36,648 nt of DNA, from positions 1 to 36,648 of IMG/VR virus record IMGVR_UViG_3300046505_000296; one strand, written 5' to 3'. Position 1 is the first letter of the stretch. Every line of letters starts with the position of its first letter. Under the pieces are notes generated by a model that was not told the DNA's origin, searched no databases, and was given only the letters and a program-made list of their open reading frames with translations. Position numbers and translations under genes: made by a program. The stretch comes from a virus. This document shows positions 2,578-21,035 of the stretch, one piece after another.

Positions 2578-3218
2578 GACAACGCAGGGTGAATGTCATC
2601 GAACAGTTCGGGGAGATGCCGTTTGAACTCGGCGAGAACCGGTCGCATTAACTGCTGCATTTGAGGATGGGCAGAATCGGCGCAGCGGAGCTGCAGGACG
2701 TGCCTCCATTCACGCAGGTTGGCCGTCATCACCACCTCGGTTTTGAGGCTGTTTGGAAGGACGCTGCGCGCCTCCTGGGGTGTCGCACCGTAATCCAGCA
2801 TGGCGAAATAGGCAGTCTCAGCGGCTGCACATGCTTGCATCCAGAAGGTAAAACAATCGTCCCACGTGGTCCAGAACGGGGGTTTGATCACAGTAATATT
2901 GCGACCGAATTGCTCCTTGGAATAATTGCAGTAGCGGGTGGACTCCTGGGAGTAAGCCGCAAGCCTGTGGCGAACGATTTCATGTGAGACTCCACGGTCA
3001 CAGACAAACCGAATCGTGACACTGGCATGCTCAATAACCGAAACGTGCTTTTTGACCTGGGTAATCTTACGGACGAACTCACCCGAGCTGTCGGCTGTGA
3101 CCTTGCATTCACTTTTATAACAGGTGCGTGCCGCGCGCTCGATCACCCGCAAAAGTTCGCGGCCCTGTTCGCCATAGATTGGCGTTTCAAACAGGTGTGA
3201 AGGTTCGATAATCTTCAT
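2574..3218 (-). CDS. thyX: flavin-dependent thymidylate synthase ThyX
   Basis: ThyX (EC 2.1.1.148) makes dTMP from dUMP using methylene-tetrahydrofolate, with FAD and NADPH as reductant. The ThyX signature RHR-x4-S-x2-S-x-R is present at residues 83-95 (RHRLAAYSQESTR). The N-terminal ARTCYKS and VKKHVSVIEHASVT blocks and the C-terminal TANLREWRHVLQLR block also match the family. At 214 aa it has the normal length. AGGAGG lies 4 bases before ATG, and the start overlaps the Gam-like gene by 4 bases. A phage thymidylate synthase in the early operon would raise dTTP supply during transpositional replication. No dUTPase, dCTP deaminase or ribonucleotide reductase is visible in the window, so it acts without phage-encoded partners here. 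Confidence 0.95.
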   Translation of the reverse strand: MKIIEPSHLFETPIYGEQGRELLRVIERAARTCYKSECKVTADSSGEFVRKITQVKKHVSVIEHASVTIRFVCDRGVSHEIVRHRLAAYSQESTRYCNYSKEQFGRNITVIKPPFWTTWDDCFTFWMQACAAAETAYFAMLDYGATPQEARSVLPNSLKTEVVMTANLREWRHVLQLRCADSAHPQMQQLMRPVLAEFKRHLPELFDDIHPALS

Positions 3219-3745
3219 GCCGCCTCCTGTTTGGCCTCGTCAATGGCGCCCTTGAGCAGTGAGGTGACGATCTTGTCCACGGCGCCATCGATGGGTTTGA
3301 TCACAATGACGTCTCCGGTGTCCTCTACACGGCAGCCGATGGCCTTCAGATCTGCCACGTCCAGATCCTGGAGCGCCTTGGTGATGGGCTTCTTTGTCGT
3401 CTTGATGAGCAACTCGGCCTGAGACCTCGGGAACCGCTTCTCGATGCGGTCACAAACGATCGCGTCATCGTCCCAGTCCACACCACCCGAGCCCTTGCGC
3501 AAGCCGACCTTGATGCCAGAGAAGACCTGCGTGCGTGGTTTTACGAACAATGCGCGACTCTCGTCAACGCCGGTGAATAACAGCGTATGGCGAGCGGCGG
3601 CAGCAGATACACACTTCTTGATCGCTGGAAGCGAGTCCTGCAGGAGCGCATCCTGTTTGTTCTGCAGCCGAGCGATGATGGCGGTTAACTCTTCGCGAGC
3701 ATCAGCGAGTTTACGGGTGAGGATTTCAATTTCGTTGAGAATCAT
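3215..3745 (-). CDS. gam: Gam-like host-nuclease inhibitor
   Basis: Mu Gam is a Ku-like DNA-end-binding protein that shields linear DNA from exonucleases. This 176-aa protein (Mu Gam is about the same size) has the same layout: an N-terminal helical, coiled-coil-like segment (residues 1-50), then a beta strand block with a V-x-SGIKVGLRKGSGG turn. Next come a helix with ERIEKRFPRS-like spacing, an ELLIKTTKKPITKALQDL segment matching Gam's 'fIRTKQEINKEAILLEP' region, and a final strand ending VIVIKPID. The similarity is structural and by eye. Position between MuB-like and early accessory genes fits. The start is the ATG at 3745, with no clear ribosome binding site. It overlaps thyX by 4 bases. 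Confidence 0.6.
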   Translation of the reverse strand: MILNEIEILTRKLADAREELTAIIARLQNKQDALLQDSLPAIKKCVSAAAARHTLLFTGVDESRALFVKPRTQVFSGIKVGLRKGSGGVDWDDDAIVCDRIEKRFPRSQAELLIKTTKKPITKALQDLDVADLKAIGCRVEDTGDVIVIKPIDGAVDKIVTSLLKGAIDEAKQEAA

Positions 3746-4273: not shown

Positions 4274-5368
4274 TCAATTGCCTTCGAGTTGCTTCAGGCC
4301 GGAATGAGCTTGGATGACATGGCTCCACTCCATCTGCTGCTTCCTCTGGGCGGCGATCTTGGCAGCCATGCGCAGTAGTGTTAGCCACATGCCAAGCGCC
4401 TCATTTTCCACCATTTGCGCTTCCAATTTACGGGCCGCCCCATCGCTGACCGGAAGATGATATGCCGCCGAGAATGCGTTTAGGTCCACCTGCTTTGGCT
4501 TGTCGTTGAGCTGCAAAGAGCAGAGGCGGCGGCGTTTCAATTGGCGCAGGACTTTTTCCATGGCCCCGTGCTCCATAGCATCCCTGAAAACATTTGTGGC
4601 GCAGATCACGACGCCGCACATGGCCTCATTGTAGAGTTCGCGGATAAACTCAAGCGTGAGTAATCCCCTTTGGCTTTGGCCGCTGGTCGGAATGCACTGA
4701 TGCGCCTCGTCAACGATCAACAGCATGCGCTCATCGAATGACTTGATGATCCGCCGCCGCAGTTCCGTTTCGCGCAACGCGGGTGATAGCCTCAACTCCT
4801 CGGCTAACTTGGCGAGAAAATGACAGAGAGAACCTCCGGCTGGCACTGCCACGTAATGAGTGTTCCCGTGGTTGTGCGCCAACTTGAATTCTTCCAGAGA
4901 TTTGGACTTGCCAATCTGACCATCTCCAAAAATGAAACCAACCTTCTGAAACTCCACAGCCGTAGCACAGACGTCCCAGATTTTGAGCGTCAGACTCGTC
5001 TCGATGAACGGTAGTTTTCGGGCTTGGTTGCGCTTGTCGAGGAGCTCAAAGAACCTTTCGATTTCCGACACGACGTTGTCCAGGTTGGCGTCATACTTCC
5101 CGCGAAACACCAGGCTCAATGTGCCTCCAGCCAGGTGGACCAGGTCGCCCGTCTTATCCAACGACAAATCGTTTTCGATGTAGTAGGCGTGGAGCCGGCG
5201 AATCGCGCTGCGCTGCTTGTCGGGGAGATCGGCAGTTGCCTGATTCACCAGATCTCCGGGGATCTTCTGCTTGGCCTCCCGCATCGCGATGATCGCGTTC
5301 TCGTGTGTATCGATGGGATTTGGTTTGTTCAACTCTTCGCGGTATTCAGGGTGTGAACTATTGTGCAT
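4274..5368 (-). CDS. MuB-like AAA ATPase, transposition target-capture protein
   Basis: MuB is the ATP-dependent DNA-binding protein that captures target DNA and activates MuA. This 364-aa protein has the MuB layout: an N-terminal HTH-type region (residues ~45-95, with SLDKTGDLVHLAGGTLSLVFRGKY), then an AAA core. The Walker A motif is GDGQIGKS at 148-155, and Walker B is LLIVDE at 216-221, followed by AHQ. A sensor-like VVICATN block and a helical C-terminal domain follow. GGAGGAG lies a few bases before the ATG. It is immediately downstream of the transposase gene (23-base gap), the order seen in Mu (A then B). It is longer than Mu B (312 aa), mostly by an N-terminal extension of about 40 residues. 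Confidence 0.88.
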   Translation of the reverse strand: MHNSSHPEYREELNKPNPIDTHENAIIAMREAKQKIPGDLVNQATADLPDKQRSAIRRLHAYYIENDLSLDKTGDLVHLAGGTLSLVFRGKYDANLDNVVSEIERFFELLDKRNQARKLPFIETSLTLKIWDVCATAVEFQKVGFIFGDGQIGKSKSLEEFKLAHNHGNTHYVAVPAGGSLCHFLAKLAEELRLSPALRETELRRRIIKSFDERMLLIVDEAHQCIPTSGQSQRGLLTLEFIRELYNEAMCGVVICATNVFRDAMEHGAMEKVLRQLKRRRLCSLQLNDKPKQVDLNAFSAAYHLPVSDGAARKLEAQMVENEALGMWLTLLRMAAKIAAQRKQQMEWSHVIQAHSGLKQLEGN

Positions 5369-10283: not shown

Positions 10284-10414
10284 GATTTCGGCTTGTCTGC
10301 CACCGCTTCCTCCAACGTCAAAACACGCGCGACCCGCACCAGCCATTCATCGAGATCACCAGCTCCAGCCGCAGTGCGGCTGAGCATCAGTCTTGGTTTG
10401 CGGGGGCGGCTCAT
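10280..10414 (-). CDS. small hypothetical protein, 44 aa
   Basis: Basic N-terminus (SRPRKPRLMLSR) followed by an amphipathic helix (LDEWLVRVARVLTLEEAV). It begins 16 bases after the RHH gene and ends in a 4-base overlap with the next start. There is no ribosome binding site, and a longer frame reaching 10561 would overlap the RHH gene heavily. Accepted only because of the operon layout. Function unknown. Confidence 0.45.
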   Translation of the reverse strand: MSRPRKPRLMLSRTAAGAGDLDEWLVRVARVLTLEEAVADKPKS

Positions 10415-10430
10415 GGTTGAGGAGGAATGA

Positions 10431-10619
10431 TCACAGAGCGGCTTCCTCCAAAAGTTGGATGCCATGCCTAGAGAGCTTTTCCCTAATCGCAATACGGATG
10501 AACTTGGAGCGATCCGAGTCGATTTTCCGAACACCCCGATCAAGCAACGGGACCAGCCCATCAGGAACCCATATTGTGAGCATCTTTGCCTCTGTCTTTG
10601 TTACTGCGCCACGCTTCAT
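10431..10619 (-). CDS. ribbon-helix-helix (Arc/CopG-type) regulator, 62 aa, first early gene
   Basis: The core KMLTIWVPDGLVPLLDRG (strand then helix) followed by DRSKFIRIAIREKL (second helix) is a textbook RHH fold, which dimerises and reads DNA with its beta ribbon. It is the first gene of the leftward early operon. A near-consensus promoter puts transcription start at about 10620, one base before the ATG, so the mRNA would be essentially leaderless. The gene faces away from a second RHH gene on the plus strand that shares the same second-helix sequence (R-x2-F-x-R-x-AIREKL). It probably acts as repressor or anti-repressor at the operator between them. Confidence 0.8.
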   Translation of the reverse strand: MKRGAVTKTEAKMLTIWVPDGLVPLLDRGVRKIDSDRSKFIRIAIREKLSRHGIQLLEEAAL

Positions 10620-10626
10620 TTGTGTA

Positions 10627-10655
10627 AATATAGACTCAGTCTATACACATGTCAA
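10627..10655 (-). promoter_or_regulatory. early leftward sigma70-type promoter
   Basis: On the minus strand, -35 TTGACA (10655-10650) is separated by exactly 17 bases from -10 TATATT (10632-10627). Predicted start is about 10620, directly before the ATG of the RHH gene at 10619. This is the strongest promoter-like sequence I see in the window. The palindromic operator overlaps its spacer and -10. Confidence 0.8.
10629..10645. promoter_or_regulatory. palindromic operator, TATAGACT-C-AGTCTATA
   Basis: Two perfect 8-base inverted arms flank one central base. An outer TGTGTA (10621-10626) and TACACA extend partial symmetry on both sides. It covers the spacer and -10 of the early promoter. A further half-site, TATAGAC, lies at 10692-10698 over the -10 of the candidate rightward promoter. 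This arrangement fits binding by dimers of the RHH proteins encoded on either side. Confidence 0.75.
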
Positions 10656-10668
10656 CAAAAAATCTGGG

Positions 10669-10697
10669 TTGATTTCTGGATAGGGTGGGTTTATAGA
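10669..10697 (+). promoter_or_regulatory. candidate rightward promoter for the second RHH gene
   Basis: TTGATT (10669-10674), a 17-base spacer, and TATAGA (10692-10697) give a moderate sigma70 match. Predicted start is at about 10703-10704, the same place as the GTG of the RHH gene, so this transcript would also be leaderless. The -10 is part of a TATAGAC half-site shared with the palindromic operator. Confidence 0.45.
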
Positions 10698-10703
10698 CAC
10701 CTT

Positions 10704-11024
10704 GTGGGAAAACGCGCGCCAGGCCAAAAACTCCTTACGGTTCCGACAAAGGAACAATTCCTTAAGGAGGTTGATGCGGGCTTGATTAGCCTTGGGCGCT
10801 CAAACCGCGCGCAATTCGTTCGTGAAGCCATCCGGGAAAAACTGCAAAGTCTGAATATTCACGTTCCAGAGCATTTGACTGCGGCTCCTGGCCGTGCTCC
10901 CTCCATTAAATATCACGAGCGGTCCACGAAAGAGACTAATTCAGGCGTAGGTGCGAAAGCGGAGCGTGCGCGCATAAAAGGCATTTCTCACTCTTTGCGC
11001 AGAGTGAGCAAATCCTCCTCTTAA
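10704..11024 (+). CDS. ribbon-helix-helix repressor-like protein, 106 aa
   Basis: RHH core: KLLTVPTKEQFLKEVDAGL followed by RAQFVREAIREKLQSLNI. The second helix is nearly the same as that of the divergent 62-aa RHH protein, so the two are paralogues. An extra C-terminal tail of ~50 residues is polar and basic. The frame is open far upstream, but the only plausible start near the promoter is the GTG at 10704. By position (divergent from the early operon) it corresponds to the c repressor of Mu, though Mu c belongs to another fold. I infer a lysogeny repressor. Its last 89 bases overlap an opposite-strand small gene. Confidence 0.7.
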   Translation: MGKRAPGQKLLTVPTKEQFLKEVDAGLISLGRSNRAQFVREAIREKLQSLNIHVPEHLTAAPGRAPSIKYHERSTKETNSGVGAKAERARIKGISHSLRRVSKSSS

Positions 11025-11130
11025 TTTCGGCAATATCCAGTTCCATGCGCTCGACCATCTGCCTCAAGTCACCAATGGTAAGTCCTTGCATTATTTCTTC
11101 CAGTTCCAAATCCGCAATTCTTGCGCCCAT
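10936..11130 (-). CDS. small double-CxxC protein, 64 aa, antisense to the RHH gene end
   Basis: AAGGA lies 7 bases before the ATG at 11130. The protein is helical and amphipathic (LRQMVERMELDIAEIKRRI), then has CSLC and CLLC five residues apart and ends in a His-containing tail, which suggests a zinc-binding knuckle and a coiled-coil dimer. It would be the only minus-strand gene to the right of the early promoter and overlaps the plus-strand RHH 3' end by 89 bases. Base composition does not decide. I hold it as probable, not certain. Confidence 0.45.
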   Translation of the reverse strand: MGARIADLELEEIMQGLTIGDLRQMVERMELDIAEIKRRICSLCAKSEKCLLCAHAPLSHLRLN

Positions 11131-11160
11131 AACAAATCCTTTCGAACCGGAGAGGAACCG

Positions 11161-11244
11161 ATGTCGCAATCAGTTTCCGCCCCACCCCAAGTTTCTCAAG
11201 CTAAAGTTATGAACAATCGGGTGGGACAAAGGCTGTCCATGTGA
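11161..11244 (+). CDS. possible 27-aa leader peptide
   Basis: GGAGAGGA is a good ribosome binding site 4-5 bases before the ATG at 11161. The peptide is polar, has no recognised motif and ends 20 bases before the next gene. An inverted repeat GGACA-N5-TGTCC (11224-11238) lies at its end. It could be a leader for the zinc-ribbon membrane protein or a chance frame. Confidence 0.25.
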   Translation: MSQSVSAPPQVSQAKVMNNRVGQRLSM

Positions 11245-11263
11245 ATAAGTCGAAAGGGAAAAT

Positions 11264-11689
11264 ATGAGCGCGATCTTAAATGTACCAGAGCTGACTCACT
11301 ACACCTTCTGCCCGGCCTGTCGTGAGCGGATCGAGACCACCGTGGACGCCCTCGGTGTAGGCATCGATTGTCCCGTCTGTGGAATCCACTTCGTGCCACA
11401 GAACATCAAGCCGTTCAGCGCAGAGGAATTCAAGCTGCCTCCCACAGAGAAATCAGCTTCAAAAAGTCTCCACGAATCTGGTCGCAGTCTGTTATTCCTC
11501 GCACTCCTCTCATGGCTTGTCGCAATAATCTCCTTCATGTGGAGCTTTCGCGATCAGGTGCAGCCACTGCCACCACTCATTTGCGCCAGCTTCTTTTTCG
11601 TCATTGGCTGGGCTTTGATTTTCCTTGGACAGTTCTATCACATCCGCGCCGCACTAGATCGTATTGCGGGAATATCGCGGCAGAAATAG
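11264..11689 (+). CDS. zinc-ribbon membrane protein, 141 aa
   Basis: The first 45 residues hold two C-x2-C knuckles (CPAC, then CPVC about 20 residues later), a rubredoxin-like zinc ribbon. Two hydrophobic helices follow at about residues 75-95 (LLFLALLSWLVAIISFMW) and 103-123 (PPLICASFFFVIGWALIFLG), with a short basic end. AAAGGG precedes the ATG by 5 bases. Topology suggests a cytoplasmic zinc ribbon and a hairpin in the inner membrane. It opens the rightward late-type region. Role unknown. Two-helix membrane proteins near lysis genes can be holins, but a zinc ribbon is not typical of holins. Confidence 0.75.
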   Translation: MSAILNVPELTHYTFCPACRERIETTVDALGVGIDCPVCGIHFVPQNIKPFSAEEFKLPPTEKSASKSLHESGRSLLFLALLSWLVAIISFMWSFRDQVQPLPPLICASFFFVIGWALIFLGQFYHIRAALDRIAGISRQK

Positions 11690-11767
11690 TCAGACCTTCA
11701 GGCTCCTCCTTTCGCAGTAGTCACTCAGTTCCGCTTCTCCTTTGATGCGCGCATTCTGCGCGTGTGA

Positions 11768-11837
11768 TTCGGACAAATCAATCCCGAAATGATCTGAAGG
11801 CCGGCTCGCAGGCCGACTCCTCCCGCGTTTGTCCGAA
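11768..11837. repeat. spaced 10-bp inverted repeat before the beta-barrel gene
   Basis: TTCGGACAAA (11768-11777) and TTTGTCCGAA (11828-11837) are perfect inverted copies 50 bases apart, within the 202-base stretch (11690-11891) that holds no convincing gene. GC-rich short repeats (GGCCGGC, GGCCGAC) lie between them. The element could be an operator pair for late activation or an RNA stem-loop upstream of the next gene. Also in the stretch is a hairpin CGCGCA-N3-TGCGCG near 11755. Confidence 0.5.
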
Positions 11838-11891
11838 CGCGTTACCCGGTGTGCGGCCGCGCCTTCGCTTTCAGTCAACCCCAATAAAACC

Positions 11892-12458
11892 ATGAAGACA
11901 ATCCCCCCATTCATCGCATGCCTTGGCGCACTTTGCGTCCTGGCGGTTCCCACTCAAGCCCAGACGAACGCCATCCCCACATCCGGCAGCTTCGCTCAAA
12001 CCGCGTTTTCCTGGGTGACATCGCCCAACCCGGAATTCGCCGGAACATTCTCGACGAACAATGGGGACGCCTGGACCGGCGTTGACTCGATCCAAGGCGG
12101 CCCGGTCTCTTTGGCCAATGAACTCGGGCTGGACTACAAGATCTGGAAACAGGTGGCGGTTGAATCTGTCACGCGCAACAGCGGCATCGCTGGCACCCTT
12201 GTCAGCCAGCAGTTGGGACTCAATCTGAGTTTTGTCATCGTGGACACGAAGTTGACGCTCTACGGGGATGGCGGATACGAGTTCGCGGATTTTCCCGGCG
12301 CGGTCGTCCAACCCAAAACGCGGGACCGTCTCTATGGTGAGTTCGGGTTGCGCGTGGCAAAGGCTTTGACACTTCACACTTACACGCAGATCGGCATCGG
12401 GGTTCAGTTGCCAAAATCTGCGCAGGTATTCATGGCCGCTGTCGGCTTCACGTTTTAA
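11892..12458 (+). CDS. predicted outer-membrane beta-barrel protein, 188 aa
   Basis: The N-terminus is a Sec signal peptide (MKTIPPFIACLGALCVLAVPTQAQ, likely cut after AQA). The mature part alternates polar and hydrophobic residues in beta-strand style (LNLSFVIVDTKLTLYGDGGYEF, GEFGLRVAKALTLHTYTQIGIGV) and ends with Phe (VGFTF), the usual C-terminal signal for outer-membrane insertion by Bam. The frame is open from 11829, but the ATG at 11892 places the signal peptide at the N-terminus. The host must therefore be diderm. As a phage late or lysogenic-conversion gene it could alter host surface receptors or block superinfection. Substrate unknown. Confidence 0.75.
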   Translation: MKTIPPFIACLGALCVLAVPTQAQTNAIPTSGSFAQTAFSWVTSPNPEFAGTFSTNNGDAWTGVDSIQGGPVSLANELGLDYKIWKQVAVESVTRNSGIAGTLVSQQLGLNLSFVIVDTKLTLYGDGGYEFADFPGAVVQPKTRDRLYGEFGLRVAKALTLHTYTQIGIGVQLPKSAQVFMAAVGFTF

Positions 12459-14382: not shown

Positions 14383-14651
14383 CCGCACGCCAGGCCACCA
14401 TCATCACCCACACGTTGCGCTTCCTGGAACTGCTCGAAGGAGCCCAGGCGGTGGAGGCTGTTATTCACGCGAGCGTCCAGGGATCGATGAGCCTCTTTGG
14501 TGAAGTGCGGCCATCCTTCGCCGAGATGAGCGAGGCAATCAAGGTGTGTGACGAGCGTGGATGGATTAACGGCGTCGTGAGCCGGGTGAAAGGCGTCATG
14601 AAATGGAACATCACTGACGGTGGTCGGGCCGCGCTCCTGGAGATGCAATGA
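14379..14651 (+). CDS. winged-helix-like protein, 90 aa
   Basis: A helical protein with a C-terminal pattern of a winged helix: EMSEAIKVCDERGWINGVVSRVKGVMKWNITDGGRAALL, where the last part (W-x-ITDGGRAAL) is a common ending of wHTH modules. The start overlaps the upstream stop by 4 bases, and the DUF3486 gene starts one base after its stop codon. It may be a late regulator or a small packaging protein that binds DNA. Unproven. Confidence 0.6.
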   Translation: MTARQATIITHTLRFLELLEGAQAVEAVIHASVQGSMSLFGEVRPSFAEMSEAIKVCDERGWINGVVSRVKGVMKWNITDGGRAALLEMQ

Positions 14652-15230
14652 ATGAGCACGAACAAACCACGCGGCGGTCAGGATTCGCAATTGACGAAAC
14701 TCAAGATGCTGCCCGCTGCCACGCGGGAAGTCATTTGGTCATGGCGCGAGGAATTGAAGGACGGCACGCCGCTCAGCAATGCCGCCATCCGGAATCGCCT
14801 GGCCACGCAGTTTGGGGTGCGGCTGCAGCGCGATGGGCAATTGTCTGTGTTCTGGTCCTGGCAGGCGCACCAAATGCGCACGGAGAGTTACAACGCCAAG
14901 ATCGAGCAGTTCGAGGAGTTTTACGCCAAGCAGAATCCCAATGCCTCACGGGAGCGCGTTCGGGATGCGGCGATTTCGTTTTTCATGACGGAGACGGCCG
15001 CCAATGGGGATCGGGAAGGATTTGTGGATGTGGCCAACCTGGACTTGCGGGAACGCGAAGGCGCGACGCGAGCCAGGTTCGAGGAACGGAAGATCAATGT
15101 GAGCGAACGGCGGGTGGCGCTGCTCGAGCAGAAAGCGGCCGCGTTCGACCAGGCCAAGAAGATTTCAGACAGCAAGCTGACTCCTGCAGAGAAGGATTCG
15201 GAGTACCGCCGCATTTTTGGAATGTCGTGA
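14652..15230 (+). CDS. DUF3486 family protein (Mu gp27-like, probable small terminase)
   Basis: The N-terminal region (LTKLKMLPAATREVIWSWREELKDGTPLSNAAIRNRLATQFGV, shown here as separate helices) is the DNA-binding domain of DUF3486/gp27 proteins, where short 'lP.evr..i...l.....s..ei...l...G' motifs recur. The rest is a long coiled coil (about residues 70-185). At 192 aa it matches Mu gp27. It lies directly before the large terminase and overlaps it by 4 bases (GTGA), as gp27 precedes gp28 in Mu. Expected role: recognition of the packaging start and recruitment of the motor. Confidence 0.8.
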   Translation: MSTNKPRGGQDSQLTKLKMLPAATREVIWSWREELKDGTPLSNAAIRNRLATQFGVRLQRDGQLSVFWSWQAHQMRTESYNAKIEQFEEFYAKQNPNASRERVRDAAISFFMTETAANGDREGFVDVANLDLREREGATRARFEERKINVSERRVALLEQKAAAFDQAKKISDSKLTPAEKDSEYRRIFGMS

Positions 15231-16714
15231 AGACACAGCATACCAAACGCAAGACACGATGCGTCACGCCCGCTGGCGCCAGTACGCCGGCCAATGCTGG
15301 AAGCTTGGGATCGCAGGATTCTGCGACGGCAGCGGGCAAATCCATTTCCATCCACGTCCCGAAGTCCCCACTCGATCTGCTGCTGCCATACCAGCGCAAG
15401 CTGGCGGATGACGAGGCGCGTTTCAAATATGCGCTCCAGGCCAGGCAGACTGGGAAAGATTTCACGAGCGGCGCTGAGGGCATCCGCGATTGTTTCCTGC
15501 ATGAGTTGAAGCGCGACAAGGTGAACTGGCTGATCGCGGCTCCATCCGAACGCCAGTCCATTGAGTCGTTGGAGAAGTGGAAGGAATGGACGGAGGCATT
15601 CAAGCTGGCTATCGCAGACGTCCAGGAAGAACGCGAGGACGCGAAGAACAGCGAGTCGCTCCTTAAATCGTCCACGATCACGTTCCCAAATGGTTCTCGA
15701 GTGATTGCGGTGCCTGGCAAGCCGGATACCGTTCGTGGATTTTCCGCGAACATTCTGCTGACCGAGTTCGCGTTCTTCGAAGATCCGGACAAGACGTGGC
15801 GGGCGATTCTGCCGAGCATCACAAACCCGCTGCGTGGCGGGTTGAAGAAATGCCGCTTGGTCACCACGCCAAACGGCGTCGGCAACAAGGCGCACGATCT
15901 CTGGCTTAAAAACTATCAGCAGCCAAATTCAAAGTGGAGCTGTCACCGCATTGATATTTACGACGCGGTCAAGCAGGGGCTTCCCGTTGACATCGAGGAA
16001 CTGAAGGCAGCGCTCGATGACCTGGAAGGTTGGGCTCAGGAATATGAACTCAACTTTCTCGACCAGGCCACAGTCCTACTTCCATACGACCTGATCGTTC
16101 CCTGTGAGAACCCGCTGGCGACGGCGACATGTGATCCAAGCTTTTGGGCTCCGACCAGCGGAGGCGCTCCCATCTTCCTTGGCATCGATTTTGGCCGGTC
16201 ACGGGATCTCACCGTCTGCTGGGCCGTTGAACTGATTGGCGGCACGTTCCGAATGACGAAGGAAGTATTGGAGCTGCGGAAGATGTCCACGCCGGATCAG
16301 CTCGACATTTTACGCCCGCGCATCCGACGCGCTCAACACGTCTGCCTGGACTACACCGGCCCCGGAGTCGGCTTGGGTGATCTGATGGTGGCACCCAAGG
16401 AAGGCTTTAGTCAGTGGAAACCGGAGGAACACAAATTTGGGAAGGTCGAGCTTTGCACGTTCACCAACAAGCTGAAGCTTGAAATCTTCCCGTCGCTGCG
16501 GGTTGCATTTGAGCAGAAAACGATCGGCATTCCGGTGAACCGCGTGATCCGCGACGACCTCCACAGTATGAGCCGCGTTGCCCTGGCTGGTGGCGGTGTG
16601 ACATACCGGGCGCCGCACACCGTGGATGGCCATGCCGACCGCTGCACAGGTCTGGCTTTGGCGATCCGGGCCGGCAAGCAGCCGGGAATGAACTTTTCAG
16701 CCACTTTGATATGA
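15227..16714 (+). CDS. large terminase subunit (Mu gp28-like)
   Basis: Motor ATPase plus nuclease that packages phage DNA. The ATPase P-loop region is ALQARQTGKDFTS (residues ~69-81), close to the SRQTGKD type of Mu gp28. The Walker B region is ANILLTEFAFFED, where Thr179 stands in place of the usual Asp but Glu180 is kept. The nuclease domain shows GIDFGRSRD (D321), CLDYTGPG (D375) and VDGHAD (D471), an RNase H-like metal site. I chose the GTG at 15227, which overlaps the DUF3486 stop. The frame is open 580 bases upstream, but that is a shadow of the previous gene. Length 495 aa, near Mu gp28 (about 550). Confidence 0.92.
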   Translation: MKTQHTKRKTRCVTPAGASTPANAGSLGSQDSATAAGKSISIHVPKSPLDLLLPYQRKLADDEARFKYALQARQTGKDFTSGAEGIRDCFLHELKRDKVNWLIAAPSERQSIESLEKWKEWTEAFKLAIADVQEEREDAKNSESLLKSSTITFPNGSRVIAVPGKPDTVRGFSANILLTEFAFFEDPDKTWRAILPSITNPLRGGLKKCRLVTTPNGVGNKAHDLWLKNYQQPNSKWSCHRIDIYDAVKQGLPVDIEELKAALDDLEGWAQEYELNFLDQATVLLPYDLIVPCENPLATATCDPSFWAPTSGGAPIFLGIDFGRSRDLTVCWAVELIGGTFRMTKEVLELRKMSTPDQLDILRPRIRRAQHVCLDYTGPGVGLGDLMVAPKEGFSQWKPEEHKFGKVELCTFTNKLKLEIFPSLRVAFEQKTIGIPVNRVIRDDLHSMSRVALAGGGVTYRAPHTVDGHADRCTGLALAIRAGKQPGMNFSATLI

Positions 16715-16875
16715 TCCGCGACCCCCTCCTAATTGCCCCAGGACGATTTCAGGGGTGTCTATGCCGCGGTCGCGTCCTCCGACGCCACAGCGAGCCAGTT
16801 AAAGCGGGACTTAAGGCGGCGTTTAAGTGGGTTCAACCCTCGTTTTACCATCCCGCCACAGGAGGTGTGGTTTGA
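16711..16875 (+). CDS. small basic protein between terminase and portal, 54 aa
   Basis: An ATG overlapping the terminase stop by 4 bases (ATGA at 16711) opens a 54-codon frame that ends in a 4-base overlap with the portal TTG start (TTGA at 16872). It thus fills the gap precisely. The protein is basic with two Cys (CLC at 16-18) and a C-terminal KWVQPSFYHPATGG. No family is recognised. The double coupling is the evidence that it is real and also supports the unusual portal start. Confidence 0.6.
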   Translation: MIRDPLLIAPGRFQGCLCRGRVLRRHSEPVKAGLKAAFKWVQPSFYHPATGGVV

Positions 16876-19064
16876 AACCCGGATTTTTCACAAAATGGGC
16901 CGGGTCGATCCTCAAGAAATCGCTGGCCCAGCTCACCGCCAACTTCACCCATGGGTTGGATCTGAATGACGCCGGGGCGGTCTCGGCCTTTACCAAGCCG
17001 TTTGCCCAATCCGCCTGGGTGCGGAGCGCCATCAGCAAGGTGGCAGGTCCCATCTCCGCCGTGGATCTGTTCTTTACTGATGATGAGAACGAAGTCGAGG
17101 ATCCGCGCCTGGCTGCTTTCTGGTCCGCACCGGCCTTGAACCCGGATTTTACCCGGATGAGCATCGTGGATTTTAAGGACATCTCGGTGTCCTGGCTGCT
17201 CCTGCGCGGCGAAGTGTTCTACATCCTGGACGATTCCTGGGTGGTGCCGTTCCCCGATGTCGCTGGCGGAATCCGCACCCCGCTCATCATCCCGCGTCCG
17301 GATCGGATGCGTGAAGTGGTCTTTGGCGGGCAGCTTCAGGAATGGGTTTACACGGATGTGGCAGGCAAGCAGACCCATTTCTCACCCGACCGAATCCTGC
17401 AGATCAAACTTTTTAACCCATACAACCAGTGGCGCGGCCTCGGGCCTATGGAAGCGGCGATGATCGCCGCTGGTGGCGACTACGCGGCAGGTCTGTTCGC
17501 CAAGAACACCGCCGAGGCTAATGGGGACCAGGGCGTTTACGTTGTGGCCAAGGGAGGAATTCCGGATGACAAGCAGCGTGAGCAGATCGTGAACCAGCTA
17601 CGCGAGAAACGCGCCATGCAGCAGCGCGGGATCTTTAGGCCCGCATTTCTGACGGGTGACATCACGATTGAAGATCCCAAGGTGCGCGCGGTAGATGTGG
17701 CGTTCATTTCGCAACGGACGGAAGCCCGCCGGGAAATCGCAATCGCTTTCGGCGTGCCGCCGAGTTTCTTTGATCCGCTCGCCAGCTACAGCATCGGCTC
17801 GCAAAGCGACCGGTTCATCTTGATCGAGGAAACCTGCAAACCGCTCGGTGCGCGGCTGTGTGGCGGTTGGGCGGCCATCGCCTCGCATATCATCGCGCGG
17901 CCTGTGACGGCGAAGCTGGATTGGGACGATCATAGTGTGATGCAGGCGGTGCGGCGCGAACGGCTGGATTCAGCGCTGAAACTCTGGGGCACCGGCATGC
18001 CGATGAAAGAAGTTAGTGATTATCTTTCCCTTGAACTGCCCGAGTATCCCGGTTGGGACAGGGGTTTCCTGCCATTGAATCTCGCTCCAATTGACGAAGC
18101 CACACAAAGCTCGACGGACAATCCTGCGCTGGCTGAACCAGACATTGCACCTCCCGATCCGGTCAAGGACGCCATTCGCGCGCTACAGAGCGGCCACCGT
18201 GTTCCAGAGAACAATGGCAGGTGCGGCACGCACTGCGGCTGCAGCGTGGATGAGGAGGCGATGGTCAAGAGCGGTCGCGACCCGAAAGAGATTACCCTTT
18301 GGAAATCCATCGTCTCGAAACGCCGAGAAACCCTCAAAATCTACCTGGCGAAATTTAGCAAGGTGCTGATGATCGCCCGGGCGCAGGTGCTGCGTAAGCT
18401 GGAACGCGCGGCGCTTGAAAAAGCTCTCACGCCGGAGCAACGCTCCACTGCCGCCGACTTCCTGTTTGATCTGATGGGCTTTGATAAGACCTTCCAGTTT
18501 TCGATGCGTGGTGTGGCGCTGGATGCGCTGCAGAAAGCCGGGGACCAGGTGCTGGCCGAAATCGGCAAGGATGAACCCTGGAAGATGCCGCAGGCGGAAG
18601 CCATGCGTTTCCTATCCGAGCGCAAGAGCAAACTCTCCGGAGTGTCTAAGGAAGTTTACGACCGCATCCGCGACAAGATTTCCGAGGGTCTTACCAATGG
18701 CGATCCGCTTTCGACAATTGCCGATTCGATCCGCGCCGAGTTCAACGACATCTCGAAAGTTCGCGGCCTGGTGATCGCCCAAACGGAAACCTCCGCTGCC
18801 TACGGTTTTGGCCGGCACACGGCCATGAAGGAAGCGGGCATCAAGTTCAAGAAATGGCTCACCAGTGGAAACTCCAACGTCCGCGCCGCGCATCAGGACA
18901 TGAATGGGGAGATCGTTCCCATCGACGAACTGTTTCTCGTCGTGGACCCCAGGACCGGCGAGAGCGACGAAATCCTGCATCCCGGCGACTCGGCTGGTGA
19001 ACCGTGGAATGTGATCAACTGCCACTGCGTGGAAGTGGCCAGCAAGGAAGGACCGGAAGAATAA
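16872..19064 (+). CDS. portal protein fused to MuF-like minor head domain, 730 aa
   Basis: Residues 1 to ~400 are an HK97-type portal: a helical start, a domain with FYILDDSWVVPFPD and FSPDRILQIKLFNPYNQWRGLGPMEAA, and FGVPPSFFDP plus a SDRFILIEETCKPLGARL stem-helix region. After a Cys-rich linker (CGTHCGC) the final ~170 residues match the Mu gpF/SPP1 gp7 family (PF04233): AQTETSAAYGFGRHTAMKEAG, KKWLTSGNSNVRAAHQDMNGE, and the ending WNVINCHCVE. Start: TTG at 16872 with AGGAGG 6 bases upstream and a 4-base overlap with the small gene before it. A GTG at 16827 is the alternative. The portal forms the DNA entry ring; MuF aids head assembly or DNA ejection. Confidence 0.9.
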   Translation: MKPGFFTKWAGSILKKSLAQLTANFTHGLDLNDAGAVSAFTKPFAQSAWVRSAISKVAGPISAVDLFFTDDENEVEDPRLAAFWSAPALNPDFTRMSIVDFKDISVSWLLLRGEVFYILDDSWVVPFPDVAGGIRTPLIIPRPDRMREVVFGGQLQEWVYTDVAGKQTHFSPDRILQIKLFNPYNQWRGLGPMEAAMIAAGGDYAAGLFAKNTAEANGDQGVYVVAKGGIPDDKQREQIVNQLREKRAMQQRGIFRPAFLTGDITIEDPKVRAVDVAFISQRTEARREIAIAFGVPPSFFDPLASYSIGSQSDRFILIEETCKPLGARLCGGWAAIASHIIARPVTAKLDWDDHSVMQAVRRERLDSALKLWGTGMPMKEVSDYLSLELPEYPGWDRGFLPLNLAPIDEATQSSTDNPALAEPDIAPPDPVKDAIRALQSGHRVPENNGRCGTHCGCSVDEEAMVKSGRDPKEITLWKSIVSKRRETLKIYLAKFSKVLMIARAQVLRKLERAALEKALTPEQRSTAADFLFDLMGFDKTFQFSMRGVALDALQKAGDQVLAEIGKDEPWKMPQAEAMRFLSERKSKLSGVSKEVYDRIRDKISEGLTNGDPLSTIADSIRAEFNDISKVRGLVIAQTETSAAYGFGRHTAMKEAGIKFKKWLTSGNSNVRAAHQDMNGEIVPIDELFLVVDPRTGESDEILHPGDSAGEPWNVINCHCVEVASKEGPEE

Positions 19065-19066
19065 TC

Positions 19067-19741
19067 ATGCAACCCATCCGCCGCACCATTCATCCCGAAG
19101 TCAAAGTGCTCGATGCCAAGGCCGGCATCGCCGAATACGTCGCCAGCGACGAAACGATTGACAGCTACCGCGAGATCATCCGAGCGGATGGCTGGCGCTT
19201 CAGCCGTTTCGCGAAGAATGCACCCTTCGTGGATTCTCACGACTACGGCACTGTCGAGAAGTTGCTCGGCAAGGTGATGGATTTCAAAGTCGCGGGCGCC
19301 ACGCTCGTTGAAACCGTGCAATGGGCCATTGACGTGCCGGAGAACAAGCTGGCGCAGCTCGGTTGGAAGATGACGGCCGCCGGCTACTTACGGGCAGTCA
19401 GTGTCGGTTTCATTCCCACAAAGGCTGTGAGTCGATGGGACTCTAATCCGGACCCATTTGTCAAGGAGCTCACACGGCTCGGCCTCGATGAAAAAAGCGG
19501 AGTGCGCGCCATTTATCTGCAACAGGAACAAATCGAGCTGAGCGCCTGCATCATTGGCGCGAACCCGAATGCCCTGGCCAAATCCTACAAGGCCGGCGTC
19601 ATCAACGACGCGGACCTGGATACCATTTCGACTGAGATCGCCAAACACGCAACCGCCAACCCGGCTGATGGACCCGCTGCCGCCGCGTTGGCCCAGCAGC
19701 GGGCGCGCATGGCATTTCGAGTCGAGTTAGCCAAACTGTAA
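19067..19741 (+). CDS. HK97-family prohead protease
   Basis: Serine protease that trims scaffold and capsid during head maturation. His58 in DSHDYGTVEKLLGKV and Ser112 in YLRAVSVGFIP are the two signature catalytic positions of the family (PF04586). The C-terminal ~40 residues are Ala-rich and helical, possibly a capsid-targeting or self-cleaved tail. I use the ATG at 19067 (MQPIRR), two bases after the portal stop, although the frame opens at 19004. At 224 aa it is of normal length and lies directly before the capsid gene. Confidence 0.88.
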   Translation: MQPIRRTIHPEVKVLDAKAGIAEYVASDETIDSYREIIRADGWRFSRFAKNAPFVDSHDYGTVEKLLGKVMDFKVAGATLVETVQWAIDVPENKLAQLGWKMTAAGYLRAVSVGFIPTKAVSRWDSNPDPFVKELTRLGLDEKSGVRAIYLQQEQIELSACIIGANPNALAKSYKAGVINDADLDTISTEIAKHATANPADGPAAAALAQQRARMAFRVELAKL

Positions 19742-19748
19742 AACCATT

Positions 19749-21035
19749 ATGTTACGAAGATCCATTCCCCTGTTAATCGCCGATGCTGCCGAAGGCGCCC
19801 TCTCTGAGACGGAGTTCCAGAAGAAAGTCCTGGCTGGCGTCGAAGCGCTTCAAACCAAAATCACCACACTCGAAACCGGCAAGGCATCCGGCGAGGAAAT
19901 CACCAAAATCAAAACCGAGATCAACAAGATCGCGGCTGATCTGCAGGTAATGCAGCGCACTCAGTCCAAATTGCGAAACTTGCGCTCGGCCAAACCTGGC
20001 CAGGTATCGGATGATGCCGCCCGCCATCTCGGAGCCATCGCGCTCGTCATTGGTCTCCAGCGTGGTCAGATCAAAGGTGCGACCGCTGAAGGACTGGTCA
20101 AAGACATCCTCGGCATCGAGGCCAGGACGGCCGTCGCGTCGTCGGATATTCCGCTGCCGACCGAATATCAGGGTGAAGTTGTCGAGTTGGTTGGCCAATA
20201 CGGCGCCGCCCGGCAATACGGCACCGTGTTCCCGCTTGGCGCGGGCACCGTAAAGTTGCCCAAGCTCACCACTGACCCTGTGTTCACCCTCGTTGCGGCC
20301 AGTGGTGGAGTGGGTGAGAAGGTGCCACAGACGCCCTTCGTGACGTTCACCGCCGAAAAGTTTGGCGGTATCGTCCGGCTGCCGTCCGAAATCGAGGACG
20401 ACAGCATCATCGCCATCGGCCAATTCCTGGCGCGATATGCAGCGCGCAATATCGCCCGCGTCGAAGACACCAACTTCTTTGTTGGCACCGGCGCTGGCTC
20501 AGGGGTGAATGGTTCGGTCGCGGGCCTCACTGCCAGCACCATCACCAACTCCAAGGTTGTGCAGATGGCGGGAACGATGACGGCTTACAGCAAAGCGACG
20601 CTGGCGAACTTCCGCGCGCTGCGCGCCGTTCCGGATGCGCCGATCATTCGCCGTGGTTTCTACTACCTCCATCCCACGATGGAGCAGTTGCTCTCCACGT
20701 TCAACACGGCCGGCGACAAGCCCTACAACCCGAACGCGCAGTTCTCGAACACGGGAGGCCAGCCGTTCCTCTCTGGCGCCACGCTCGACGGCTATCCGAT
20801 CCGTTGGGTGGACGTCCTGCCCGCGTATTCCGCCTCGGCGGTCATCAGCACCGTCTTCGCCCTGTTCGGCGACTGCAGCTACCAGTACCTCGGCGTGCGC
20901 GGCGGCATCCGCTTCGACACATCGATGGAAGCCGGTTTCACCACGGATGAGATCCTCGTCCGTGCGCTGGAGCGTTTCACCATCGGCCTGATGGCCCTCG
21001 GTGCGGTTGCCGGCCTCGAAACAGCCGCAGCCTAA
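19749..21035 (+). CDS. HK97-fold major capsid protein
   Basis: The first ~100 residues are helical (TEFQKKVLAGVEALQTKITTLETGK, then KIKTEINKIAADLQ), matching the scaffolding delta domain removed by the protease. The rest matches the PF05065 capsid fold: VASSDIPLPTEYQGEVVELV (N-arm to E-loop), a GAGTVKLPKLTTD strand, TAEKFGGIVRLPSEIEDDS (spine helix start) and a P-domain helix. The A-domain segment FYYLHPTMEQLLSTF, YPIRWVDVLPA, and the C-terminal GDCSYQYLGVRGGIRFDTS follow. At 428 aa it is typical. A terminator follows within 15 bases. Mu itself has a different head protein, so this is a mixed genome. Confidence 0.92.
   Translation: MLRRSIPLLIADAAEGALSETEFQKKVLAGVEALQTKITTLETGKASGEEITKIKTEINKIAADLQVMQRTQSKLRNLRSAKPGQVSDDAARHLGAIALVIGLQRGQIKGATAEGLVKDILGIEARTAVASSDIPLPTEYQGEVVELVGQYGAARQYGTVFPLGAGTVKLPKLTTDPVFTLVAASGGVGEKVPQTPFVTFTAEKFGGIVRLPSEIEDDSIIAIGQFLARYAARNIARVEDTNFFVGTGAGSGVNGSVAGLTASTITNSKVVQMAGTMTAYSKATLANFRALRAVPDAPIIRRGFYYLHPTMEQLLSTFNTAGDKPYNPNAQFSNTGGQPFLSGATLDGYPIRWVDVLPAYSASAVISTVFALFGDCSYQYLGVRGGIRFDTSMEAGFTTDEILVRALERFTIGLMALGAVAGLETAAA

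What the first reader, a model, noticed from the sequence alone, without database searches (positions are those of the whole stretch)
10431..11024. Two paralogous RHH regulators face each other across one operator: a possible RHH/RHH lysis-lysogeny switch
The 62-aa minus-strand and 106-aa plus-strand proteins share the second-helix sequence AIREKL and the same strand-helix spacing. Between them lies a perfect TATAGACT-C-AGTCTATA palindrome, plus a TATAGAC half-site over the opposite promoter. In Mu, c and Ner are not RHH proteins. A switch made of two homologous RHH proteins competing for one operator would be a new arrangement for a Mu-type element. The layout is seen directly; the switch function is inferred.
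Basis: partly seen in the sequence, partly recalled or inferred. Interest (0 to 1): 0.75.

Follow-up and report, generated by a model that had tools for sequence, protein, structure and literature searches.

The report
Twin-repressor switch in Mu-like phages
A transposing (Mu-like) virus of bacteria, with relatives in Verrucomicrobiota, starts its jumping genes next to two back-to-back sister DNA-binding proteins with one operator between them; the same trio sits in at least 13 related viruses where others carry a classical repressor pair, so it is very probably their dormancy switch.

Summary
E (10431-10619, -) and R (10704-11024, +) are divergent ribbon-helix-helix (RHH) paralogues. The palindrome at 10629-10645 lies inside the E promoter (TTGACA-17-TATATT). 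E heads the leftward MuA-MuB-Gam operon; structural genes run right.

A scan for the operator alone found L093, a Mu-like phage with the same E/operator/R trio. Homology then gave 14 distinct divergent RHH pairs at the head of MuA/MuB operons, some in Verrucomicrobiota genomes. E and R of one phage resemble each other more than those of different phages, most clearly in the presumed DNA-contacting strand. Operator-like inverted repeats recur in the E promoters.

Relatives without the pair often carry HTH regulators there, including a CI-like HTH+S24 repressor. HTH_3 passes its cut-off in 22 of 31 such records, against 0 of 9 with an RHH pair. The pair is scattered on the MuB tree, so it behaves as an exchangeable immunity cassette.

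It works like P22 immI (mnt/arc), but is built from CopG-like RHH proteins and sits in the c/Ner slot. New variant of a known kind. Switch function, and binding of both proteins to one operator, are inferred; the lone TATAGAC half-site is not significant.

The parts
10431..10619 (-). E: 62-aa RHH protein, first gene of the leftward transposition operon (Ner/Arc-like position)
   Evidence: ORF; RHH_1 E 0.0026, just below the family cut-off; AF2 pLDDT 84 with Foldseek hits to CopG, Arc and ParD-type antitoxins, none at E<0.001; 66% identical homologue in the same place in L093, N-terminus conserved, so the 62-aa start is kept
10704..11024 (+). R: 106-aa RHH protein with C-terminal extension, proposed lysogeny repressor (c/Mnt-like position)
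   Evidence: ORF, GTG start; RHH_1 weak, E 0.035; profile match to E, 97%; 37% identical homologue in L093; AF2 RHH core confident, tail about 50-65
10629..10645 (.). Operator: perfect palindrome TATAGACT-C-AGTCTATA
   Evidence: the same sequence in L093 between the homologous gene pair; lies in the -35/-10 spacer and overlaps the -10 of the E promoter
10627..10655 (-). E promoter: TTGACA (10655-10650), 17 nt, TATATT (10632-10627); 7 nt from the -10 to the ATG, so a leaderless or near-leaderless mRNA is predicted
   Evidence: the same geometry (17-18 nt spacing, short leader) in most of the other pairs
10669..10697 (+). Proposed R promoter: TTGATT (10669-10674), 17 nt, TATAGA (10692-10697); 6 nt to the GTG
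   Evidence: Read from the sequence; not found by the strict promoter scan, so weak
10692..10698 (.). Half-site copy TATAGAC at the R promoter
   Evidence: p = 0.22 alone; analogous copies significant in L093, L126, L128, L011, L013
5392..7512 (-). MuA-like transposase
   Evidence: phrog_310, E 2e-14; aligned with Mu A
4274..5368 (-). MuB-like AAA ATPase
   Evidence: phrog_296, E 5e-22; Phage-MuB_C, TniB
3215..3745 (-). Mu Gam-like end protection protein
   Evidence: phrog_491, E 3.5e-6
14648..21035 (+). Start of the rightward arm: terminase large subunit (14648-16714), portal-MuF fusion (16827-19064), major capsid (19749-21035)

Best explanation
The pair with its operator is the immunity (lysis-lysogeny) switch of a B3-type two-armed Mu-like phage whose relatives occur in Verrucomicrobiota. 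E is made first with the transposition operon and works like Ner or Arc: it binds the operator inside its own promoter and turns the early operon down, probably also acting on the R promoter. R is its divergent paralogue, with a C-terminal extension, and works like c or Mnt: in the lysogen it holds the same promoter off, so MuA/MuB are not made. Because the two are sisters reading related half-sites, relative dosage and affinity at one compact intergenic region would set the state. Shown here: gene pair, homology, operator position, conservation across 14 phages, covariation of the presumed contact strands, and replacement by HTH regulators in the same slot. Inferred: DNA binding, who represses whom, the lysogeny phenotype.
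For: Same trio in L093, found by the operator sequence alone: 4 contigs in the whole viral collection hold the pattern, and one of them is this homologous locus. 14 distinct divergent RHH pairs, each with E on the MuA/MuB strand. Operator-like inverted repeats in E promoters, Fisher p 2.6e-6 over 12 phages, with two later phages giving p 0.001 and 0.002. Shared words between E-side and R-side, Fisher p 2e-5. Within-phage E-R score 67 versus 38 between, no permutation of 20,000 reaching it, also within subgroups; contact columns p 5e-5 and 1.5e-4. HTH_3 over cut-off in 22/31 records without the pair versus 0/9 with it, p 1.8e-4; no HTH_3 in the window. L016 has an HTH+S24 repressor in the R slot. 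The pair needs 10 changes on the MuB tree. Two-arm layout with regulators between is described for B3-like phages (PMC8705779).
Against: No binding or phenotype data. In the window the third presumed contact residue differs (E: W; R: P), so shared recognition of this exact palindrome is less certain than in, for example, L113 or L124. The R-side half-site is not significant here. R runs in the direction of the late arm and no terminator was found between R and 11264, so R could belong to a later phase. Several of the 12 phages have no significant palindrome, some showing direct repeats instead (for example L099, L026). The window is a fragment without identified ends.
Confidence: 0.72

Rival explanations
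1. Only E is the early autoregulator (Ner/Arc role); R is an activator or timing regulator of the rightward late arm and lysogeny is kept by another, unrecognised protein.
For: R is codirectional with the structural arm and no terminator separates them; some RHH proteins activate as well as repress (AmrZ, PMC3325190, abstract).
Against: R sits where a sister phage carries an HTH+S24 repressor; no HTH_3 protein is found in the window; R-side half-site copies in relatives and contact-strand covariation point to a shared operator.
Confidence: 0.15
2. E and R are antitoxin-like or other RHH accessory proteins (orphan antitoxins) that merely flank the operon.
For: Best solved-structure matches include VapB, MazE and ParD-type antitoxin domains.
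Against: No toxin-family match in the neighbouring ORFs tested; the pair, orientation and promoter geometry are kept in 14 phages, always at the head of the MuA/MuB operon.
Confidence: 0.05
3. The pair arose by separate recent duplications in different phages, so the within-phage similarity reflects shared descent rather than shared recognition; the two proteins bind different sites.
For: E and R do not form two clean classes in a short-domain tree, and L018 E and R group together; similarity is also raised in helix A, not only in the strand.
Against: E proteins of window, L093 and L126 share the DRSKF motif and their R proteins share N-[KR]-[AS]-Q-F, so those pairs predate the phages; half-site words recur on both sides in L093, L126, L011, L013.
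Confidence: 0.2

Closest known systems
P22 immI secondary immunity region (mnt/arc, ant)
   Same: Two homologous RHH repressors transcribed divergently from about 90 bp; the short one (Arc, 53 aa) heads the lytic gene's operon, the longer one (Mnt, 83 aa) maintains lysogeny; the Arc operator lies inside the promoter it controls.
   Different: P22 immI controls an antirepressor as a secondary immunity module; here the pair controls the transposition operon and appears to be the main switch. E and R match RHH_1 (CopG) rather than Arc, and profiles of E and R barely score Arc/Mnt.
Mu c/Ner switch (and B3/D3112-like equivalents)
   Same: Divergent regulator pair at the head of the ner-A-B operon; small early regulator first, repressor opposite.
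   Different: c and Ner are not RHH proteins (own knowledge; HTH/winged type); here both are RHH paralogues and the early arm runs opposite to the structural arm.
B3-like two-armed transposable prophages (e.g. Leptospira)
   Same: Left and right arms transcribed apart, separated by regulatory genes; adjacent paralogous regulators reported in 60 prophages (PMC8705779).
   Different: The class of that Leptospira regulator is not stated in the passages read; no RHH is mentioned there.

Membership tests
RHH (CopG-like, RHH_1) DNA-binding proteins | Strand-helix-helix domain recognised by family models | tested here: met
   Window E and R are below the Pfam cut-off alone (18.1 and 14.5 versus 20.5 bits), but RHH_1 matches 8/12 E and 10/12 R members at E<=0.1; AF2/Foldseek finds CopG/Arc folds for E, weakly for R
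RHH (CopG-like, RHH_1) DNA-binding proteins | Dimer binds palindromic half-sites through the strand | not testable with these tools
   Operator palindrome present; binding needs experiment
P22 immI-type Arc/Mnt switch | Two homologous RHH proteins, divergent, operator between | tested here: met
   that they repress is not shown
P22 immI-type Arc/Mnt switch | Proteins belong to the Arc/Mnt sequence family | tested here: not met
   E and R profiles score Arc and Mnt at 1.3-8.7 bits; Pfam Arc matches only 1 of 12 R members
P22 immI-type Arc/Mnt switch | Controls an antirepressor gene (ant) | tested here: not met
   E heads the MuA/MuB operon instead
Mu c/Ner-type switch | Regulator pair at the head of the ner-A-B transposition operon | tested here: met
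Mu c/Ner-type switch | Regulators are HTH-type proteins homologous to c and Ner | tested here: not met
   No HTH_3 in the window; both are RHH
Mu-like transposable phage | MuA, MuB and Gam homologues with head genes | tested here: met
Mu-like transposable phage | Defined ends bound by the transposase and host-DNA flanks | not tested
   The record has no identified ends
Type II toxin-antitoxin (RHH antitoxin) | Toxin gene next to the RHH gene | tested here: not met
   No toxin-family match in the adjacent ORFs

The most novel reading that the evidence does not exclude
A lineage of Mu-like phages found in Verrucomicrobiota uses an exchangeable immunity cassette of two RHH paralogues that co-evolve with one operator word, so that lysogeny and lytic development are decided by sister proteins (possibly also as heterodimers) competing for the same half-sites, and whole cassettes are swapped with HTH cassettes.
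Probability: 0.45. Interest if true: 0.75.

Novelty: new variant of a known kind. Interest (0 to 1): 0.58.

Why it matters
It shows a phage immunity switch in which both sides are RHH paralogues at what looks like the main decision point of a transposing phage, in a lineage with members in a phylum whose phages are little studied, and it gives a natural set of 14 protein pairs with their operators in which RHH recognition can be read from covariation. The replacement of HTH cassettes by RHH cassettes at one locus makes the modular evolution of immunity directly testable.

Tried and rejected
Single-protein searches for relatives of E, R, MuA, MuB and the portal found nothing, because the patterns need near-identity; alignments and the operator pattern solved this. 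A start at Met13 of E was considered (read from the sequence, with a possible GAGG upstream) and dropped, because the N-terminus before it is conserved in L093. The lone TATAGAC half-site as independent evidence was rejected. tblastn of E and R in the phage collection gave only chance-level hits. Three operator-pattern hits (L090, L091, L092) carry no MuA/MuB in the DNA held and showed no RHH next to the palindrome in the searches made; taken as chance. The toxin-antitoxin reading was rejected for lack of a toxin-family match. A clean two-class tree of E and R was not obtained; 45 residues are too few. No paper on an RHH/RHH switch in Mu-like phages was found in the held library.

Full report
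What is there. The window is a 36.6-kb viral record with a MuA-like transposase, MuB-like ATPase and Gam on the minus strand and terminase, portal-MuF and capsid genes on the plus strand. The two arms diverge from 10.6 kb, the B3-type layout described for other transposable prophages (PMC8705779). At the divergence lie E (62 aa, -) and R (106 aa, +), 84 bp apart, with the palindrome TATAGACTCAGTCTATA between them.

Where the operator lies. The minus promoter TTGACA-17-TATATT (10655-10627) is the only promoter-like site found in 10300-11900 (11/12; shuffles of that region give about one on average, so the scan alone is not evidence). The palindrome fills its spacer and overlaps its -10; the -10 ends 7 nt before the E start codon, so the mRNA is predicted leaderless or nearly so. 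A protein on the palindrome would block this promoter.

Are they paralogues. E and R align with score 64 against 22 +/- 4.4 for shuffles, and their family profiles match at 97%, E 6e-11. The spacing is not identical: R has one more residue before helix B. E models well as an RHH fold (pLDDT 84; CopG, Arc and ParD-type hits, none at E<0.001); R has a confident core and an uncertain tail.

The refutation test. Scanning all viral contigs for TATAGACTNAGTCTATA gave four stretches. One, L093, is a Mu-like phage with a 66% identical E, a 37% identical R and the operator between them. A MuB alignment then brought in relatives from viral and genome collections, and a phylum search found this MuB in 42 of 388 genomes (the phylum is that of an Akkermansiaceae MAG, L099). 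In 100 loci examined there are 14 distinct divergent RHH pairs: window, L093, L011, L013, L018, L026, L099, L103, L113, L124, L126, L128, L138, L151 (L119 is the same contig as L093, L125 and L134 repeat L124). In all, E is on the strand of MuA/MuB and upstream of it.

Operators in the others. Inverted repeats sit in or over the E promoter in L093, L011, L013, L018, L124 (near-significant) and, as later checks, L138 and L151; combined p 2.6e-6 for the first 12. L099, L026, L103, L113, L126 and L128 have no significant palindrome by this test; direct repeats are visible in L099 and L103. Words shared between the E side and the R side are significant in L093, L126, L128, L011 and L013, combined p 2e-5, but not in the window (p 0.22).

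Co-evolution. E and R of one phage score 67 on average against 38 between phages; none of 20,000 permutations reached this, also when permuting only within two subgroups. The three presumed DNA-contacting positions of the strand covary (p 5e-5; 1.5e-4 within subgroups), for example T/K and S/K in L113, G/R in both in L124, N/R in both in L018. In the window the third position differs (W, P). The choice of contact positions follows the CopG/Arc structures from my own knowledge.

What stands there in relatives without the pair. HTH_3 passes its cut-off in 22 of 31 such viral records and in 0 of 9 with the pair, leaving out one hit inside MuB; these counts are per record, not limited to the regulator slot. 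The window has none. L016 has an HTH+S24 (CI-like) protein in the R slot. The window's nearest MuB relatives (L010, L109, L111) have no RHH pair; L109 and L111 have HTH_3 hits, L010 only a weak HTH match. On the MuB tree the pair needs at least 9-10 changes. L012 and L014, 92-97% identical over long stretches, differ by a replaced 1.0-1.6 kb between the arms. This is the behaviour of an immunity cassette.

How it most likely works. E acts as the early turn-off regulator (Ner/Arc role), R as the lysogeny repressor (c/Mnt role), both at the E promoter. Operator position, conservation and covariation are shown; binding and roles are inferred.

Compared with what is known. P22 immI has the same architecture: mnt and arc divergent, 90 bp apart, the Arc operator inside the arc promoter (PMC8022706). 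Differences: it is a secondary immunity region controlling ant, and E/R are not Arc/Mnt family by sequence. I found no report of an RHH/RHH switch in a Mu-like phage in the held library. Hence: new variant of a known kind.

Noticed in passing
window 10936-11130 (-): A 64-aa ORF with a plausible Shine-Dalgarno site overlaps the 3' end of R on the opposite strand; within a longer frame with a weak SlyX-like match.
   Followed up: no
L099, L103, L113, L124, L151 R proteins, C-terminal to the RHH core: A recurring R-x-G-x-G-G motif (e.g. PDRTGKGGRPRK), AT-hook-like in some; absent from the window's R.
   Followed up: no
E genes of most pairs: The predicted -10 ends only 6-11 nt before the start codon in most phages, suggesting leaderless early mRNAs.
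   Followed up: partly
L012 4745-5768 versus L014 4179-5784: Two phages 92-97% identical over long stretches have entirely different DNA between the arms; L014 shows no HTH_3 there, so its repressor is unrecognised.
   Followed up: partly
L012/L013 9792-10990: MuB is 97% identical while flanking genes are about 73%: recent recombination within the transposition operon.
   Followed up: no
window 11264-11689 (+): Small protein with a zinc-ribbon-like N-terminus and apparent membrane segments, first larger plus-strand ORF after R.
   Followed up: no
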